Shown here: positions 54,638-62,561 of the stretch, in pieces
Layout: each line of letters opens with the position of its first letter
Position numbering within the stretch: the stretch's first letter is position 1
Assembly (NCBI GenBank): GCA_030581615.1
Contig: JAKTTT010000021.1
Span: 1-64,000, forward strand
Origin: Alloascoidea africana
Lineage: Eukaryota > Ascomycota > Alloascoideomycetes > Alloascoideales > Alloascoideaceae
Reading direction: 5' to 3'
Length of the DNA: 64,000 nucleotides
Notes under the pieces: model-generated
What the model saw: the letters and a program-made list of their open reading frames with translations, nothing else
The model's database searches: none
Told to the model about the DNA's origin: nothing
Position numbers and translations under genes: made by a program

Positions 54638-56425
54638 TTAAAACAACATGTCATTTACAACTTCATATACCATTTTTCTACGAATATTGTAAACATCGGA
54701 TTGAGAAAACCGAGGTTGTTGACCTTTTGAAAGAGATTCTGCAAATTGACAAGTGAAAACACCACAATCCGAATCGTTATTTTGTTGTGGACATGTCACT
54801 TTATCAAGAACGGACCAAGTTTTGTAACCAAAATCAAAATCAAGGTTCATTGTGGGGACTACTTGTTCATGTTCCAATCCTGATTCTCGTAATAATTGTC
54901 TAGCAGTCTCTTTTTCCATAAATTGTTGTAATTGTTTAAGTATCACTTTACCAACGAGTCTCCCACTGGACATGGAATCGTAAAAGGCAAATTGACGTTT
55001 GTTGAAATCCACAACGGCAAGACACCAATGAACACTGTGGCGGTTAATGGGGATGAAAATGTAATCGATTTTGGAAATGTCAAGCATCCCACGCTCTGCC
55101 CATTTCGCAACAGCTTCGTATCCGCGTTCCTCCAAAGTGGTATAGAAATGCGTGGTGAAACAAAATACTCGGGCCAAGTCAGGGCTGGTGCCAGAGGCTG
55201 AGGCCGAGGAGGCCGAGGCTGAGGCTGAACGCTCCATGATCATGGCGAGATAAAAGTCGATAACGTTGTCGTTTAACCATGCCCCATCTTGTAAAGTTGC
55301 GAGGTCTCCCACGGTGATTTCAATCTTGTGGGAATCCATCAACACCTTGTCCTGATCAGGATTCTTCCATATCTTGCGAACTTTTTCCAACTCTTTATGT
55401 TCCAGTCTACTAACCGCGCGATTCCTTCTTTTTCTCTGTCTGGATCTCTCGGGTCGTCTATCTGTTCTGTCAGGGGACTCTGGCTGCGTAAAACGTTCTA
55501 TTTTATTGCCATCTTCCTTGTGGTCTTCATCGCTATGGGATTGTGCCTGTGGAGGCCCAGCATGAGGATTTTCCCATTCAGGCTCAATAATAGGATACAC
55601 GGACTCCTTATCGCTGTCGGTGACAGACATTGGTTTTAACTTAACCACTTTGGGAGCCGACTCCAGGCGGTCCAGGCGGTCCACTTGGTATAGAGGCAGT
55701 CTTCCTGGGATCTCAGTAACAACTGCAGGCTCATCCAAATCGCTGTCGTCAATTGTCAGATCCCAATCCACAGATCTCAATATCCTCTTGCGCCTTGCAC
55801 TTGCGCTTGCGCTTGCACTTGTGTCGATCCGCAAGTTGGGATCTCTTCTACCGCCAGTCTCGCTGAACTCATGGCGGCTCTGTCTTGTCCCAGCGAGACG
55901 AACAATACCATTACAGCGGATGAAAATTGTACTCATTATGCGCTTTAGACCGAGCAATACGGTCCAAACGATGCCGCATAGCGTTATCCAAAATGAGGTG
56001 GCTGCAGCGATTGGAATCGAGGTTGGCTGGTCAAGATCCAGCTTCTGGGTGTAACCCTGGGGCAGGGCCTGTGTCTGTGAGTCGAAGATTGTGCCTGCTG
56101 CGGTTTGGGACCGTTTGTGGTGGTTATACCGAGGACATGAGGATATGTGGACCTGGACGGGCAGGAGGTGCTTGTTCTTTTGAGACGAGTGCAGCTGAGC
56201 TGACTGTGCTCTTTTGTGTGCGTAGCGTTTGCTAGAGGGCAGGTGTCTCTGCTGGCGAGGCTGTTCTTGCGAGAACGGGGATGAGGACGAGGGCTCTGGG
56301 GGCTGGCAGATGTCCAGGGCGGCGACGGAGTACGGATTCGCCGAGTCCTGGCGGTGATGGGGAGAAGAGTAGGACTTGGGGACTTGGGCCGGGTCCCGCG
56401 CAACGATGGCCGGAAGAGAAGACAT
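54638..56425 (-). CDS. ULP1: Ulp1-type SUMO protease
   Basis: 595 aa from Met at 56425; an earlier in-frame ATG at 56458 abuts a TATATATA run and would be too close to it if that is the TATA box. The C-terminal C48 domain contains G-A-W-L-N-D-N-V-I-D-F-Y, the catalytic His in N-R-H-S-V-H-W-C-L, Asp in F-Y-D-S-M, and Gln/Cys in C-P-Q-Q-N-N-D-S-D-C-G-V-F. A possible membrane-like hydrophobic stretch, F-W-I-T-L-C-G-I-V-W-T-V-L-L-G, lies at about residues 142-158, unusual for Ulp1. An Ala/Ser repeat sits inside the domain. Ulp1 matures SUMO and desumoylates proteins at nuclear pores. No intron. Confidence 0.9.
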   Translation of the reverse strand: MSSLPAIVARDPAQVPKSYSSPHHRQDSANPYSVAALDICQPPEPSSSSPFSQEQPRQQRHLPSSKRYAHKRAQSAQLHSSQKNKHLLPVQVHISSCPRYNHHKRSQTAAGTIFDSQTQALPQGYTQKLDLDQPTSIPIAAATSFWITLCGIVWTVLLGLKRIMSTIFIRCNGIVRLAGTRQSRHEFSETGGRRDPNLRIDTSASASASARRKRILRSVDWDLTIDDSDLDEPAVVTEIPGRLPLYQVDRLDRLESAPKVVKLKPMSVTDSDKESVYPIIEPEWENPHAGPPQAQSHSDEDHKEDGNKIERFTQPESPDRTDRRPERSRQRKRRNRAVSRLEHKELEKVRKIWKNPDQDKVLMDSHKIEITVGDLATLQDGAWLNDNVIDFYLAMIMERSASASASSASASGTSPDLARVFCFTTHFYTTLEERGYEAVAKWAERGMLDISKIDYIFIPINRHSVHWCLAVVDFNKRQFAFYDSMSSGRLVGKVILKQLQQFMEKETARQLLRESGLEHEQVVPTMNLDFDFGYKTWSVLDKVTCPQQNNDSDCGVFTCQFAESLSKGQQPRFSQSDVYNIRRKMVYEVVNDMLF

Positions 56426-56805: not shown

Positions 56806-59306
56806 CTACGCCACGAGGCGCGAGACGGCCTGGAGCACCAGCCGGTGCGGGCCCTCGCCAGGAAGCTGCTCGGGCCCAGCGACGATCTGCTTGAAGCGGA
56901 ACACAAAGTTGACGACGAGCGAGGCCAGAATCGTGATGGCGACGACCAGCGGTCCAAAGGAGCCGTCCAGGTGCTTCCCGCTGCGCTGCCGGATCAGGTT
57001 CAGACGCTTCATGTAGATATAGTAGCCCCAGACCCCGGCAAACAGCGTCAGCACAAAGTAGAGGTACGCGATCGAGGTCGCCAGCCCGGCAGAGTACGAC
57101 TGCGACACGGACGAGTACAGCGTGAAGGTCAGCACCGACAGCAGCGCCGTCACGTTGAGCCAGCGGTTGAAGGTGCGCTCGTTCGCCAGCCAGACCTTGG
57201 CTTCCACCTTCACGGGCCCCGACTGGCGGATCAGCACCTTGGGCTTGACCACCCCGGGAGGCAGGAAGATCTCGTCGTCCTCTTCAGAGTCCGCGGGCGC
57301 CTTGCCCCGGAAAAACGGCAGGCTCAGTTGCGGACGCAGGCCCTTCTTCTTGCCTGTCCGCGCGGTTCGCGATTGCGATCGCGATCCCGACGTCTCGGCG
57401 ATGGATTCCTGCTGGTGGTTGGCTTCGTCCTCCTCTTCCTCGTCGCTCGACTGCGCATCTTCAAGATCCACGTTGCCACGAGGGCCAACGGGCTCTGCTT
57501 CTTCAGCCTCGGCCTCTTCCAGATTCGCAAGCTGTCCGAGAACCGCTTTTCTCTTGGGAGACAGCGCAGGAATGGAAGAGGACCGGTTGCGTATGATCAC
57601 AGCCTCCTCTTGCTGCTTCTTCAATCTGTTCTTCTCCTCCTCCCATGCCTCCTTGGGATCCCGTCGAATGTCCAGCTCCAAATCTGGAAGCCAGAAGGGA
57701 AGGTTGTCGAGACGGTCCTGTTCTCCGTACAAAGATGCCACTCCCTGGATAAACTTGGAAAAATTAGGCACCTCTTTCACCAAATGGCTACCTGTCAATT
57801 CATTGACCCATCTCGCGTGGCTTTTCGAGATGGTTGGCGTGATAGTGTCCCTGATCTCACCGCGCTTGTTCCTGACCTTGATTTCCATGATTGCATGTGG
57901 GAACTTGGCATATTCACTCTTTCGCAATAGAGAATAAGGGTCTGCAATGTCCGAGTCAATGTCTGTACGATGCCAATTGTGCGGGTCACGGATCGGATTC
58001 TCCTCGTCAAAGTCGTCCTCACGGATGAACATGACATCCGAATCAATGATGATCCGCACCCGGTTATCACCGGGCATTTGGAAGGCCGTTCTGGTGTACA
58101 CGACACGAAGAGTAGGACTCAACTCGTGCTCACCGATAAAGTCCTGGAGATTCTTTACCGTATTCTCGTAATTCTTGATATCGTTATCCTGTGCATGTCT
58201 CTCTTTCATCTTGTGTATGTCTTTCTCCATCGAGTAGGTGCCATCGAGGAATGGTTGAATGTACTTTTGTTTCAACTTTAGGCGTTCTTCAACAACGTCC
58301 TCGCTGGTTTGCGAACGATCAACAATACGTTTCTCAAGCACAATGTCGGGCTTTTCCGTGATTTTCCCGGACCATCGAAGTCTCAAAGTGGGAGAAGATT
58401 CGTTCTTCAACAGCTTTTGGTTGTAGAGTTCAAAGTTTGAATTGTCAAAGTAGACCGAAGTGATGGTGGGATCCGAGTTTTGTTCCTCTGCCACTGAATT
58501 GTAAACCAAAACGGGCAAATGTCTAAGGATTCTCGTCTTGACCTCCATCAGATTATCTGGATGGATCCAAAATTTGTAACTGCTAAACTCCGTTTCTTCA
58601 TTGACCAAGGACAATTTGGCAGAAGCGCTCTTGCTTCCAGAAATGAAGTTTTCTCTCAAGAACGAGTAAAGCGAGGATAATCTAGATAAAAAATGTTGAT
58701 GTTGATGTTAATGTTAATGCTAATGTAATGTTGCTGCCAACGTCAACGTCAATGTCATCTAAACCAAACGGCAAATTGGCCCTACTGGTCATTGTGGGGG
58801 GATAGAGCAACCAAAAAGCAAAAACCATACCTGTATAGAAGAGGCGAGTAATCTTCAGAGTGGAAGGGCAATTCCTTCAACCGAACGGCCAACAATGCTT
58901 TAACGGAGCTAAACCTAGGATGTAAACGATCATGCTTTTTAACAATTTTGACAAACCCGGTAAAGTTGAGTCTGCTAAAATTGTCCAGTTCTTGCGCACG
59001 GCTGAGGGTTTCTTCAATATCATGTTCAAACTGTTTCAAATCCAAATCCGCAATATTGGCAGATTCGTCATCAATCTTCTTCTCCAAAACCGCAATTCTG
59101 TCTGAAATGTCCTTGTAGTGTGCACTTTGGAACCCGTAAACTTTTTCCAACTCGGCGTCCAGGGCCTCAGTGAACCTGGTCTCGTCGTTGTCGGCCCACG
59201 TCTCCCTGCTGGACTCCTTGAGCAGGGCCTTGAGCCGGTCGTACGCAAGATAGTGGTCTTTCCAAGGAGTGTACATCTCCTTTTCGAGCTTGACTCCGAA
59301 CAACAT
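56806..59306 (-). CDS. VTC2: Vacuolar transporter chaperone subunit (VTC2/VTC3 type), 2 exons
   Basis: Exons in coding order are 59306-58831 and 58681-56806, giving 783 aa (yeast Vtc2/3 are 828/835). The 149-nt intron has a GTATGG donor and contains ATGTTG/ATGTTA repeats. The SPX domain occupies residues 1-158, ending L-P-F-H-S-E-D-Y-S-P-L-L-Y-R. The polyphosphate-polymerase fold follows (H-P-D-N-L-M-E-V-K, Y-T-R-T-A-F-Q-M-P-G-D-N-R-V-R, F-P-H-A-I-M-E-I-K-V). An acidic linker and a C-terminal three-helix VTC1-like membrane domain close the protein. D-P-T-I-T-S-V-Y-F-D-N and W-H-R-T-D-I-D place it with the regulatory Vtc2/3 rather than catalytic Vtc4. VTC makes vacuolar polyphosphate under inositol-pyrophosphate control. 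Confidence 0.92.
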
Positions 59307-59410: not shown

Positions 59411-59488
59411 CACGTGCAGTCAGTGCCCCGATATACGCTAACCGCGGTAAACGTGAGCACGACTGAGACCTCGCGGATTGTGCACGTG
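59411..59488. promoter_or_regulatory. Two CACGTG boxes (Pho4-type) upstream of the VTC gene
   Basis: CACGTG at 59411-59416 and 59483-59488, 105 and 177 bp upstream of the VTC ATG. VTC genes belong to the Pho4-controlled PHO regulon in S. cerevisiae, so phosphate control is likely here; Cbf1 is the alternative reader. Confidence 0.6.
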
Positions 59489-59585
59489 AGACCCAACGTT
59501 GTTTAAACAATGAAACAGCAAAAAGGCTAAACGCGATTGACAAAAACTAAAAAAGAACTAACGAACAGTATAAAGTATTATCTAC

Positions 59586-60494
59586 CTAGGCGGTCTCCGA
59601 GTCTTGATAGTAGTACTCATCGTCGTACTCCGCGGGAGCGTAAAAGTCACGGTAAAACTCATCCAGGAGCTGGGATTCAGTGAGCCCGTAGTCGTCCTCT
59701 CCATAGTAGTAGTAGTAGTCAGCATACTCGGGAACCAGTTCGTCAGCAAGAGCAACGCCGTCAAGGCCCTGGACATAGTCAAAGTAAACGTTGGGGCCAT
59801 AGGCAACTGGGTCCAGATAGCTGTCAGTGTCAATGTCGTAGTAGGTTTCTCTGTCCACCATGGCGTACAGTTCGGGATCAATATAGCTATAGTCCTCCTC
59901 ATCGTAGGAAATCAAATCATTTTCATTCTTCAAAGCAGGACAAATTTGAAAGTTTTTGCCCGTTTCCTCCTTCAAATTTCTCTCTCCTCCCTTGGGCTTC
60001 TTCATCAACCAAAACTTCTTCTTCATCAAAACCTTGAGAAGCATAAACTTCTTTTTAACCATTGTCATCTTTTTCTTGAAAAGTTTGGCAAATCCGGAAA
60101 GAATCATCTTCTTCTTCTTTTGTAAAAGGGAGTTTTTCATAGCCATCAGTTTCTTCAACTTGGCCAGCAACAAAGCCTTCTTCTTCTTCAAAAGCATCTT
60201 CTTCTTCAACATGGCCTGCTTCTTCTTCTCCTTCATGGCATCCTTCTTACCTCCCATATCTTGCTTCTCCAAGATTAAATCCTCCTGGTTCGTGGTCAAA
60301 TCAGGAAGTCCGCCCAAGTATTGGAGTAGCATGTCCTCACTGACAAAACAGCATTCTCCCTTGGTGTCATTCTCATCACACATGACGATCATCTCCGTGT
60401 CGGGATTAAAAGAGTGAGGTTCTTCAACACTGGCACCAATTACAGCGGCTACTGGCCAAAGCAGAGCCGTGGCAATACTAATTGAAAACTTCAT
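59586..60494 (-). CDS. Secreted protein with Lys/Leu/Met-rich cationic block and acidic Tyr-rich tail; family unknown
   Basis: 302 aa, no intron. Residues 1-20 are a clear signal peptide. Residues 21-80 are mildly acidic with three Cys (C39, C48, C49); a fourth Cys is at 185. Residues 82-168 contain about 35 Lys in clusters of two to four, spaced by four to six Leu/Met/Ala/Phe, and there is no Asp or Glu from 90 to 170. This would form a long amphipathic or oligocationic helix. Residues 191-302 hold about 33 Asp/Glu and about 23 Tyr, including five Tyr in a row, and only two Arg. The ends may neutralise each other, as in precursors of cationic peptides, or phase-separate like adhesive proteins. 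Many di-Lys sites are potential Kex2-like cleavage points. I recognise no homologue. Confidence 0.8.
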   Translation of the reverse strand: MKFSISIATALLWPVAAVIGASVEEPHSFNPDTEMIVMCDENDTKGECCFVSEDMLLQYLGGLPDLTTNQEDLILEKQDMGGKKDAMKEKKKQAMLKKKMLLKKKKALLLAKLKKLMAMKNSLLQKKKKMILSGFAKLFKKKMTMVKKKFMLLKVLMKKKFWLMKKPKGGERNLKEETGKNFQICPALKNENDLISYDEEDYSYIDPELYAMVDRETYYDIDTDSYLDPVAYGPNVYFDYVQGLDGVALADELVPEYADYYYYYGEDDYGLTESQLLDEFYRDFYAPAEYDDEYYYQDSETA

Positions 60495-61268
60495 TTTTTT
60501 GGAGGTCTGGTTTTGTTAATCCGCTGGGGGGTTCCGTATTACTCTAGATAAAACGCCAGCTCCCCTTATATATAGATACAAAATAGACTATGTTTATGGA
60601 GCTCTTTATGTTGCCCCTTGGTCCTGATGTCCTGATCTTGTAAGAATCATGCACATTTTCTCCCTCATTAGCAAACATCGGGAAAAAAGCCCACAGATAA
60701 GTATGTAGGAGATTGGGAGGCAAGAATTGCATTTAACAAAGTTGGAATCTTAAATATGTTGGTATGTGCTTGCCCCAGCACTGGTTTTGTTACAAAAAAC
60801 CCACCCCAAACAACATGATAAAACCATCAAAAGCATACCTCAGCATAAGTGTGTAGCTTGCCACCTTGCTGGTTTCTCCTGATATATTTGTAAAAACAGC
60901 AGATATATCGAACCACCCCTTGTTGCTACCACCTCCCCTCTGCTCCAACCTTTTCACAACCCTCCAGAAAGCAACCTTCTGCTCTACTCTTGAGCAAAGT
61001 CGTAGCAAAAAGACAAGACTCTTTTTGCCTCATTGGGCCGCGCGCGCATCAGTTATACTGCAACACGCTGCATGCCTGCGCTTTCCCGAACGGGCAGCGT
61101 GCATTTTCCACAGGCCGCTTGCAAGGGAAATTCAAAAAAATTCACCTCCGCCGAAATCTTTTTCGTTTCTTCCTCTCCTTGGCCCTCCAACTTCTCTTTC
61201 TCTCACACCTCCCTTTCTTCTTTCGCCACGGGCCTCGACTTGCTGCTTCTGCCTTCTCCCCGCCTGCT
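60495..61268. other. Divergent promoter region of secreted-protein gene and PHO92
   Basis: A TATA box (TTATATATA, 60566-60574) lies about 75 bp upstream of the secreted-protein ATG, which suits a strongly regulated gene. The PHO92 side is a long pyrimidine-rich leader with a GCGCGCGC run near 61038-61046. No other gene. Confidence 0.55.
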
Positions 61269-62561
61269 ATGTACGCCATCAACACGCAAGTCCTCCTGGT
61301 TGACATGGACAAGAATGGAGACTTTTCCGTCCCCCGTGGCCCATCTTCCTCCTCCTGCACCGAACATGGCAACAACAAGGGTTCGCCCATCGACCATTAC
61401 AAACTGCTCGAGTCCTTCGACGTGATTCCCTCCGGCCTGCTCGACGAGTGCCCCGAGGACACCAATTCCAGAAACCACAAACCTCTGTCCTCTTGCTCGT
61501 CCTCTTGCTCGTCGTCCTCGTCGTCCTCGTGCTCCTCGTCGCTGCTCAACAACTCCCTGACCGTTGGGCTAGGGCCCGCTCATTACACCACCAATGTAAT
61601 GACCCCCCAGCTGTCGCCACCGTCCTCTCAACATGCCCATGTCCATGCCAGCGCGCCCTTCTCGCTCAGCAAGTCCATCTGGTCCGTCACCTCCAGCGAG
61701 GTCTCTGCCATGTACTCTCTTGCAAGCTCCAGCTGTTCCAAGCAGCAGTCGCACTGGGCTCTCACCACCTCTCGTTCCCCCGGAAACGCCATCGCCACCA
61801 CCACCACCACGACTCGTAGCACAGGCCCCAATGGGCCCATTGGGCCCAATGGACCCAATGGCTCGAGTAATGCCTGCTGGAAGCTCCCTGTGCCCATGTC
61901 TGTGTCGCCAGCGGGCCCTCTGTCACCGGTGTTGGACCCACAAGACTACGGTGTCCCCATCGGGTCCCGTTTCTTTGTCATCAAATCCTACAACGAGCGC
62001 GATGTCCAGAGCGCCTTTGTCCATAACGTCTGGGCCTCTACCGATTTGGGCAACAAGCGGCTAAACAAGGCATTCAAGGAGATACACGATTCGGACTATG
62101 CCAAATTTGTCAAATCCCATCCCGATCTTCACAGAACTTGTCAATTACCCAAAGTTGTCCTGTTGTTTAGTGTCAATGGTTCAGGACATTTTTGTGGTGT
62201 TGCGGAGATGACCAGTCCTGTTAGATACGATGTCAAGACCAATAATCTAAACATATGGACGGAACAATCCAGATGGCGCGGTCTCTTCACTATTAAGTGG
62301 ATTTTTGCAAAAGACATTCCGAATAATACATTAAGGAAAATCAGGGCTGTGTAAGTTCCCAACTATTCTATTCTATTCTTTTTGCGATGGTGGTGGTGGG
62401 GGGTTCTATTTTCTAACGCTTATTTTAATAGGAATAACGATAACAAACCCATCACCAACTCTAGAGATACCCAAGAGTTGTTTTATGATACTGGGAACAA
62501 AGCAATTCAAGTGTTTAAAACCTATCCTTCCAAAACAAGCTTTCTTCAAGGCATGATGTAG
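61269..62561 (+). CDS. PHO92: YTH-domain m6A reader (Pho92/Mrb1 type), 2 exons
   Basis: Exons 61269-62350 and 62432-62561 give 403 aa. The 81-nt intron has a GTAAGT donor and a TTCTAAC branch. The first ~230 residues are Ser-rich and disordered, with a nine-base GGGCCCAAT-type repeat encoding a G-P-N-G-P-I run at about 61833-61860. The YTH domain runs from about 240 to the end: S-R-F-F-V-I-K-S-Y-N-E-R-D-V, W-A-S-T-D-L-G-N-K-R-L-N, V-L-L-F-S-V-N-G-S-G-H-F-C-G-V-A-E-M, and W-T-E-Q-S-R-W-R-G. The aromatic cage Trp residues are present. Pho92 binds m6A mRNA, and in yeast affects PHO4 mRNA stability and meiosis. Earlier in-frame ATGs upstream are disfavoured because they translate the pyrimidine-rich leader. 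Confidence 0.9.

What the first reader, a model, noticed from the sequence alone, without database searches (positions are those of the whole stretch)
59586..60494. Secreted protein with split charge blocks: oligo-lysine core and acidic tyrosine-rich tail
The translation shows a signal peptide, then ~80 residues with about 35 Lys in regularly spaced clusters and no acidic residue, then ~110 residues with about 33 acidic residues and about 23 Tyr. I know no fungal family with this plan. Hypotheses: a self-neutralised precursor of a cationic membrane-active peptide, a coacervating surface protein (Lys/Tyr chemistry as in adhesive proteins), or a polyphosphate-binding protein, since Lys runs bind polyP and the next gene is a VTC polyP synthase subunit. 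It also has its own TATA box.
Basis: partly seen in the sequence, partly recalled or inferred. Interest (0 to 1): 0.78.

Follow-up and report, generated by a model that had tools for sequence, protein, structure and literature searches.

The report
Orphan secreted yeast charge-block protein
A yeast gene with no relatives found encodes a probably secreted protein made of a lysine-rich rod flanked by acidic, partly tyrosine-rich arms, which may stick to itself or to cell surfaces through opposite charges; its function is untested.

Summary
Minus-strand ORF 59586-60494 encodes 302 aa: a signal-peptide-like start, an acidic Cys-bearing domain (net -13), residues 82-168 with 35 Lys, no Arg and 2 acidic residues (net +33), and a tail with 33 acidic residues and 23 Tyr (net -31). 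The protein search found no relative, while the neighbouring VTC exon gave 949 in the same database; no paralogue was found in its own genome. Its codon usage leans most towards highly expressed genes among 75 sampled ORFs (itself included), so it is very probably a real gene.

Best reading (inferred, 0.4): a lineage-specific secreted polyampholyte that stays whole (no Lys-Arg or Arg-Arg site) and self-associates by pairing its Lys rod with acidic arms, as a surface or matrix protein. Calculated charge runs from -10 at pH 7 to +40 at pH 3, so acid could unmask the rod. Against the other ideas: helical amphipathicity is no better than shuffles, its promoter lacks the CACGTG sites of the VTC promoter, and Lys and acidic residues are segregated, unlike polyP-modified PASK domains. 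'Regular' Lys spacing is not significant over all periods tested.

The parts
59586..60494 (-). single-exon ORF, 302 aa plus TAG stop
   Evidence: codon adaptation rank 1 of 75
60567..60574 (-). TATA box (TATATATA, followed by AGGGG), first base 80 nt upstream of the ATG
   Evidence: consensus scan
60429..60494 (-). signal-peptide-like start, residues 1-22 (Lys2, then hydrophobic core to Ala21)
   Evidence: read from the sequence; 19-residue hydropathy reaches 1.97 here and at most 0.76 in windows starting at residue 23 or later; no signal-peptide predictor available
60252..60428 (-). acidic N-terminal domain, residues 23-81, net -13, Cys39, Cys48, Cys49, one N-glycosylation sequon at Asn42
59991..60251 (-). 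Lys block, residues 82-168: 35 Lys, 0 Arg, 2 acidic, 16 Leu, 11 Met; modelled as part of one long helix (68-164)
59925..59990 (-). linker, residues 169-190, with Cys185
59589..59924 (-). acidic Tyr-rich tail, residues 191-302: 33 acidic, 23 Tyr, net -31; low model confidence, probably disordered
60168..60248 (.). imperfect 18-24 nt tandem repeats inside the Lys block (hint of origin by AAG-rich repeat expansion)
   Evidence: Tandem Repeats Finder

Best explanation
A lineage-restricted, well-expressed protein of a Saccharomycotina-like yeast. It is secreted and, having no KR or RR site, most likely stays mostly whole. It is a self-complementary polyampholyte: a Lys-rich rod that would be helical when its charge is neutralised, held between an acidic Cys-bearing N-terminal domain and a disordered acidic Tyr-rich tail. 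Pairing of rods with acidic arms of other molecules, or with anionic wall polymers, builds a charge-driven coacervate or matrix at the cell surface. Near-neutral secretory pH keeps it self-neutralised, and acidified medium strips the acidic arms of charge and exposes a strong polycation. Shown: the block plan, charge segregation, lack of KR/RR sites, codon adaptation and orphan status within the searches made. Inferred: secretion, intactness, self-association, surface location and the pH switch.
For: Charge blocks far beyond shuffles and beyond all other of the 146 sampled ORFs on the Lys and Tyr/acid measures. Codon adaptation is rank 1 of 75, so an abundant product is likely. Lys used almost to the exclusion of Arg (41 to 3; binomial P about 3e-8 against the Lys:Arg ratio of sampled ORFs); a paper on secreted Tyr/Lys-rich diatom proteins reports the same Lys-over-Arg preference and suggests charge-driven aggregation for two of them (PMC4220933, passages seen). 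No KR/RR/PR site although a kexin-like P-domain protein is encoded. Calculated charge -10 at pH 7, pI 4.75, +40 at pH 3. The Lys block has 71 of 87 residues that are strong helix formers, and single-sequence AlphaFold2 gives one helix 68-164, with mean confidence 78-94 in the ten-residue blocks from 81 to 160 and 48-64 at its ends.
Against: No homologue, transcript or protein evidence. Lys excess may come partly from AAG-repeat expansion (48 of 87 codons in the block are AAG, ATG or TTG) rather than selection. Kex2 can also cut Lys-Lys to a lesser extent (PMC6339444, passages), and there are 19 overlapping Lys-Lys pairs. No cross-linking enzyme was shown: tyrosinase search uninformative, amine oxidases without visible signal peptide. 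In the diatom study the one protein of the class that could be localised, AC3362, was judged a cell-wall protein rather than one involved in surface adhesion, and the diatom reportedly lacks Dopa, so adhesion is not established even for the analogue. The helix model comes from a single sequence of helix-forming residues and is weak evidence (mean pLDDT 54.7). The pH switch is a calculation with standard pKa values, which ignores pKa shifts inside a complex.
Confidence: 0.4

Rival explanations
1. Precursor of a cationic membrane-active peptide: acidic flanks neutralise the Lys block during secretion, and extracellular proteases or Kex2 at Lys-Lys release it.
For: Signal-peptide-like start, +33 Leu/Met/Phe/Lys block almost without acidic residues, acidic flanks on both sides; Kex2 cuts KK to a lesser extent (PMC6339444, passages); a segment from residue 131 has an 18-residue hydrophobic moment of 0.52.
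Against: No KR/RR site at either border; the block is 87 residues; neither whole-block helical periodicity nor the best local hydrophobic moment (p = 0.33-0.57) exceeds shuffles of the same residues.
Confidence: 0.22
2. A polyanion-binding wall or matrix protein whose Lys block is bound to phosphomannan or extracellular nucleic acid rather than to its own tail.
For: Lys clusters without Arg and net +33.
Against: The acidic tail and N-domain (together -44) would compete at neutral pH; nothing specific points to a ligand.
Confidence: 0.12
3. A polyphosphate-binding protein of the vacuole or surface, functionally tied to the neighbouring VTC gene.
For: Same-strand neighbour of a VTC2/3-type subunit; Lys is the residue modified by polyP (PMC7008358, passages).
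Against: Two CACGTG sites lie in the VTC promoter (59411, 59483; 5 in the 64-kb window) and none, nor the AACGTG/CACGTT variants, in the 774 bp before this gene. PASK domains intermix acidic residues and Lys, and the acidic residues are needed for Top1 modification; here they are segregated.
Confidence: 0.06
4. A young gene grown from AAG-rich repeat expansion with no selected function for the blocks.
For: Tandem repeats in the Lys block, no relative found, single copy found.
Against: Codon adaptation outside the Lys codons and in residues 169-302 alone (z = 3.8) is hard to explain without selection on expression; the distinct acidic Tyr-rich tail is not an AAG product.
Confidence: 0.12

Closest known systems
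Tyr/Lys-rich secreted proteins of the diatom Amphora coffeaeformis (AC3362, AC714, AC4076; PMC4220933, passages seen)
   Same: Signal peptide, modular charge blocks, high Tyr and Lys, Lys in place of Arg, no homologues of the whole proteins by ordinary search; charge-driven aggregation suggested for AC714 and AC4076.
   Different: I did not compare sequences. Those have Pro-rich modules and Lys-Gly repeats; here Tyr lies almost only in the acidic tail and the Lys block is Leu/Met-rich and helix-prone. AC3362 was judged a cell-wall protein rather than an adhesin. The paper reports PSI-BLAST similarity of segments of AC3362 and AC4076 to fungal proteins.
Silaffin precursor Sil1p (PMC4557024, passages seen)
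   Same: Signal peptide, acidic N-terminal domain, then a strongly basic Lys-clustered part.
   Different: Silaffin's basic part is C-terminal and highly repetitive, with modified Lys and phosphorylated Ser; here it is central with 2 Ser in 87 residues, and a second acidic block follows.
Candida albicans Ece1, the candidalysin precursor (PMC5784256, passages seen)
   Same: Secreted yeast precursor of similar length (271 aa in that paper) containing a membrane-damaging peptide segment.
   Different: Ece1 has seven KR sites; this protein has none.
Kex2-processed repeat proteins (PMC6339444, passages seen)
   Same: Signal peptide and many basic pairs.
   Different: No near-identical repeats between cleavage sites, and Lys-Lys pairs only.
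PASK domains that undergo Lys polyphosphorylation (PMC7008358, passages seen)
   Same: Many Lys and many acidic residues in one protein.
   Different: Segregated rather than intermixed; a secretory-type rather than a nuclear protein.

Membership tests
Kex2-processed repeat proteins | signal peptide | tested here: inconclusive
   Sequence reads as one; no predictor was run.
Kex2-processed repeat proteins | at least three near-identical repeats separated by Kex2 sites | tested here: not met
   Segments between Lys runs differ; Lys-block self-similarity p = 0.05 against 300 shuffles; 0 KR/RR sites.
Ece1/candidalysin-type precursor | toxin segment bordered by KR sites | tested here: not met
   No KR or RR anywhere; Ece1 description.
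Cationic amphipathic helical peptide precursor | cationic segment with helical amphipathicity | tested here: inconclusive
   Cationic yes; best 18-residue moment 0.52 but not above shuffles of the same residues (p = 0.33), no whole-block helical period.
Cationic amphipathic helical peptide precursor | membrane-permeabilising activity | not testable with these tools
   Needs peptide assay.
PASK / Lys-polyphosphorylated proteins | Lys interspersed with acidic and Ser residues | tested here: not met
   81 residues without any acidic residue; 2 Ser in residues 82-168.
Silaffins | Lys clusters combined with many Ser (phosphorylated) in repeats | tested here: not met
   2 Ser in the Lys block; description.
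Tyr/Lys-rich secreted surface proteins (a compositional class, not a homology family) | signal peptide with a Tyr- and Lys-rich, charge-modular chain | tested here: met
   Composition; class description; signal peptide judged by eye only.
Tyr/Lys-rich secreted surface proteins (a compositional class, not a homology family) | location at the cell surface | not testable with these tools
   Needs a tagged protein.

The most novel reading that the evidence does not exclude
An acid-switched, self-neutralised polycation: acidic N-terminal and Tyr-rich arms cage a Lys helix at the pH of the secretory pathway; when the yeast acidifies its surroundings the arms lose charge (calculated net -10 at pH 7 to +40 at pH 3) and an uncut chain becomes a strong polycation that glues cells or acts on competing microbes, with no protease needed for activation.
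Probability: 0.17. Interest if true: 0.75.

Novelty: new variant of a known kind. Interest (0 to 1): 0.5.

Why it matters
If the best reading holds, a yeast evolved, perhaps from repeat-rich sequence, a secreted block polyampholyte that works like the Lys/Tyr-rich surface proteins of diatoms without shared ancestry: a natural genetically encoded coacervate or pH-switched polycation in a fungus, testable in ordinary laboratory yeast. It would also be a case of an orphan gene already adapted for high expression.

Tried and rejected
Alternative code: rejected on one gene; at 9 of 9 VTC CTG codons lying in columns where at least 7 of 10 compared proteins agree, the shared residue is Leu. Lys block as an unspliced intron: considered because GGTAAGAAG occurs near its start; judged unlikely because the block is purine-rich, stop-free and the most codon-adapted part; not tested with transcripts. 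Diverged paralogue: none found for whole protein, N-part, Lys block or tail (only the tool's best candidates are scored). Duplicated or hybrid genome: the VTC search gave 8 matches and no second near-identical full copy (a 34-residue hit at 71% lies at the edge of contig C43). Enzymatic Lys cross-linking: three Cu amine oxidases found, no signal peptide by eye at the first Met of the open frame; an unseen upstream exon is not excluded. Tyrosinase: none, but the control rang nowhere, so absence is not shown. Solved structures by sequence: best E 0.75, taken as chance. A fold search was not run because the model is one helix plus low-confidence chain. The bacterial promoter/terminator scan is not meaningful in a yeast. 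One search failed on a file name and was redone. Paper searches: searches found 0 papers and three unrelated ones for secreted Lys/Tyr-rich or polyampholyte yeast proteins; (Kex2 specificity, acidic propeptides) gave listings I did not use; this is a search of open-licence PMC papers only.

Full report
The gene. On the minus strand, 59586-60494 is one open frame of 302 codons plus TAG. Among ATG-started ORFs of 80 aa or more, the only other one overlapping it is a 106-aa frame at 59582-59902 on the same strand. It begins MKFSISIATALLWPVAAVIGAS, which reads as a signal peptide with cleavage near residue 21-22 (judged by eye; 19-residue hydropathy 1.97 at the start, at most 0.76 in windows starting at residue 23 or later). 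An A-rich leader and a TATA box (TATATATA, 60574-60567, first base 80 nt upstream) precede it.

The blocks. Residues 23-81: net -13, three Cys. Residues 82-168: 35 Lys, 16 Leu, 11 Met, no Arg, 2 acidic, net +33. Residues 169-190: linker with Cys185. Residues 191-302: 33 acidic, 23 Tyr, no Lys, net -31. Among 146 non-overlapping ORFs of 100 aa or more in 264 kb (the window plus 20 stretches of 10 kb), its best 80-residue window scores 32 for Lys minus acidic, against 13 for the next; on a joint Tyr-and-acidic score scaled to this tail it has 1.0 and the next 0.43. SCD is -11.7 against 0.07 +/- 0.95 in 500 shuffles, and kappa 0.315 against 0.161 +/- 0.026. Against uniqueness: among 87 ORFs of 200 aa or more, a 321-aa ORF on L018 has nearly the same SCD, -11.3 against -11.5 for this full-length protein. 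The tail has weak internal repetition (offset 8, p = 0.003 against 300 shuffles; Lys block p = 0.05).

What the Lys block is not. Lys clustering is real but a fixed period is not established (best angles p = 0.004 singly, 0.15 over all angles). There is no excess at the helical 100 degrees (p = 0.21), and the best local hydrophobic moment, in a segment beginning at residue 131, is no better than shuffles (p = 0.36, 0.33 and 0.57 for 11, 18 and 24 residues). It looks like a helix-prone cationic rod rather than a tuned amphipathic helix. Single-sequence AlphaFold2 draws one helix, 68-164, with high confidence over residues 81-160 and lower at its ends, and leaves 186 of 302 residues below 50 (mean pLDDT 54.7, pTM 0.27); for a chain of Lys, Leu, Met and Ala this is weak evidence.

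Is it a real gene? The reference was seven stop-to-stop frames of elongation factor 1-alpha (2), GAPDH (3) and enolase (2), from eight loci fetched; L025, an organellar-type EF-Tu, was left out, and the frames include a few codons upstream of the start. Against these its codon adaptation index is 0.651, with a median of 0.451 and a 90th percentile of 0.515 in 75 ORFs of 250 aa or more (itself included); it ranks first. Corrected for amino-acid composition it still ranks first, z = 6.0, or 4.5 with Lys left out; by part, z is 0.9 for 1-81, 5.7 for 82-168 and 3.8 for 169-302. Six of seven reference genes score higher (excess per codon 0.51-0.63; one 0.25; this gene 0.30). A plain codon log-likelihood under background usage is just at expectation. 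So the gene is probably expressed well above average but below glycolytic level.

Relatives. Among about 5.8 billion proteins, 2337 candidates shared words and none scored E <= 0.001; the N-terminal region alone had 7 candidates and none at E <= 10. The same database gave 949 matches among 2206 candidates for residues 1-300 of the neighbouring VTC exon; of the 120 listed many are from named yeasts; the best, unnamed, is 69% identical, the others listed 59% or lower. The database thus covers yeasts, but a fast-evolving, biased protein could be missed at such distances, and the search needs shared five-residue words. Own-genome searches with the whole protein and three parts found only itself. 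Pfam 0, PHROGs 0, NCBIfam one chance hit at E 0.33, PDB sequences one at E 0.75. CTG is read as Leu in the VTC gene (9 of 9 conserved columns), which speaks against a CTG-Ser or CTG-Ala yeast. The species was not identified; the named VTC matches at the top of the list are Saccharomycotina (lineage recalled).

Processing. All three Arg follow Glu, Asp or Tyr, so there is no KR, RR or PR site; with only three Arg this is unremarkable in itself, and 8 of 74 other sampled ORFs of 250 aa or more also lack KR/RR. The informative fact is the lack of Arg: 3 of 44 basic residues, P about 3e-8 against the sampled Lys:Arg ratio. AAG-repeat growth could also cause that. A kexin-like P-domain protein is encoded. 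Lys-Lys is a lesser Kex2 site in fungi (PMC6339444, passages), so nibbling of the Lys block is possible.

Phosphate. Downstream on the same strand lies a VTC2/3-type gene: an SPX exon, a likely 149-nt intron (58830-58682, inferred by reading frame from the sequence) and a VTC/DUF202 exon. The 279 bp before its ATG hold two CACGTG sites and one AACGTG; CACGTG is the motif bound by yeast Pho4 (recalled). The 774 bp before our gene, shared with the divergent YTH gene, hold none. Lys polyphosphorylation of Top1 needs the acidic residues of its PASK domain (PMC7008358, passages); here Lys and acidic residues lie apart. The adjacency is real; a functional link has no support.

Mechanism. Calculated net charge of the mature chain is -10 at pH 7, zero at 4.75 and +40 at pH 3; the tail goes from -30 to 0 while the Lys block stays near +33 to +35. 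The chain is thus self-neutralised at near-neutral pH and a polycation in acid, such as yeasts can create around themselves (recalled). Combined with charge blocks, Lys over Arg and abundant Tyr, the best analogy is with secreted Lys/Tyr-rich proteins such as those of Amphora, where Lys also replaces Arg and charge-driven aggregation was suggested for two members (PMC4220933, passages). The same paper judged its one localised member, AC3362, a cell-wall protein rather than an adhesin, so the analogy supports a surface place better than an adhesive role. I hold self-association at the cell surface as most likely (0.4), a peptide precursor second (0.22), and keep the pH switch as the boldest reading not excluded. 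All functional steps are inferred; nothing here measures secretion, location or binding.

Noticed in passing
56806-59306 (-): VTC2/3-type gene split by a likely 149-nt intron between the SPX and VTC exons; the closest database protein (P0001, 69%) also lacks the SPX part, as if called from an intron-split gene.
   Followed up: partly
59411-59416 and 59483-59488: Two CACGTG sites in the short VTC promoter, of 5 in the whole 64-kb window.
   Followed up: partly
61269-62354 (+): YTH-domain gene (Pfam E 4e-30) divergent from the orphan, with a likely intron starting near 62352; its yeast counterpart Pho92 is also phosphate-linked (recalled).
   Followed up: no
54638-56425 (-): Ulp1-type C48 peptidase with a long N-terminal part outside the domain.
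   Followed up: no
L018:2642-3607 (-): 321-aa ORF with almost as strong charge segregation (SCD -11.3) but without a Lys-only block.
   Followed up: no
L037, L038, L039: Three copper amine oxidases with no signal peptide by eye; C-termini end in SKNNL, SKNSL and SKKL, suggestive of peroxisomal import (recalled motif).
   Followed up: partly
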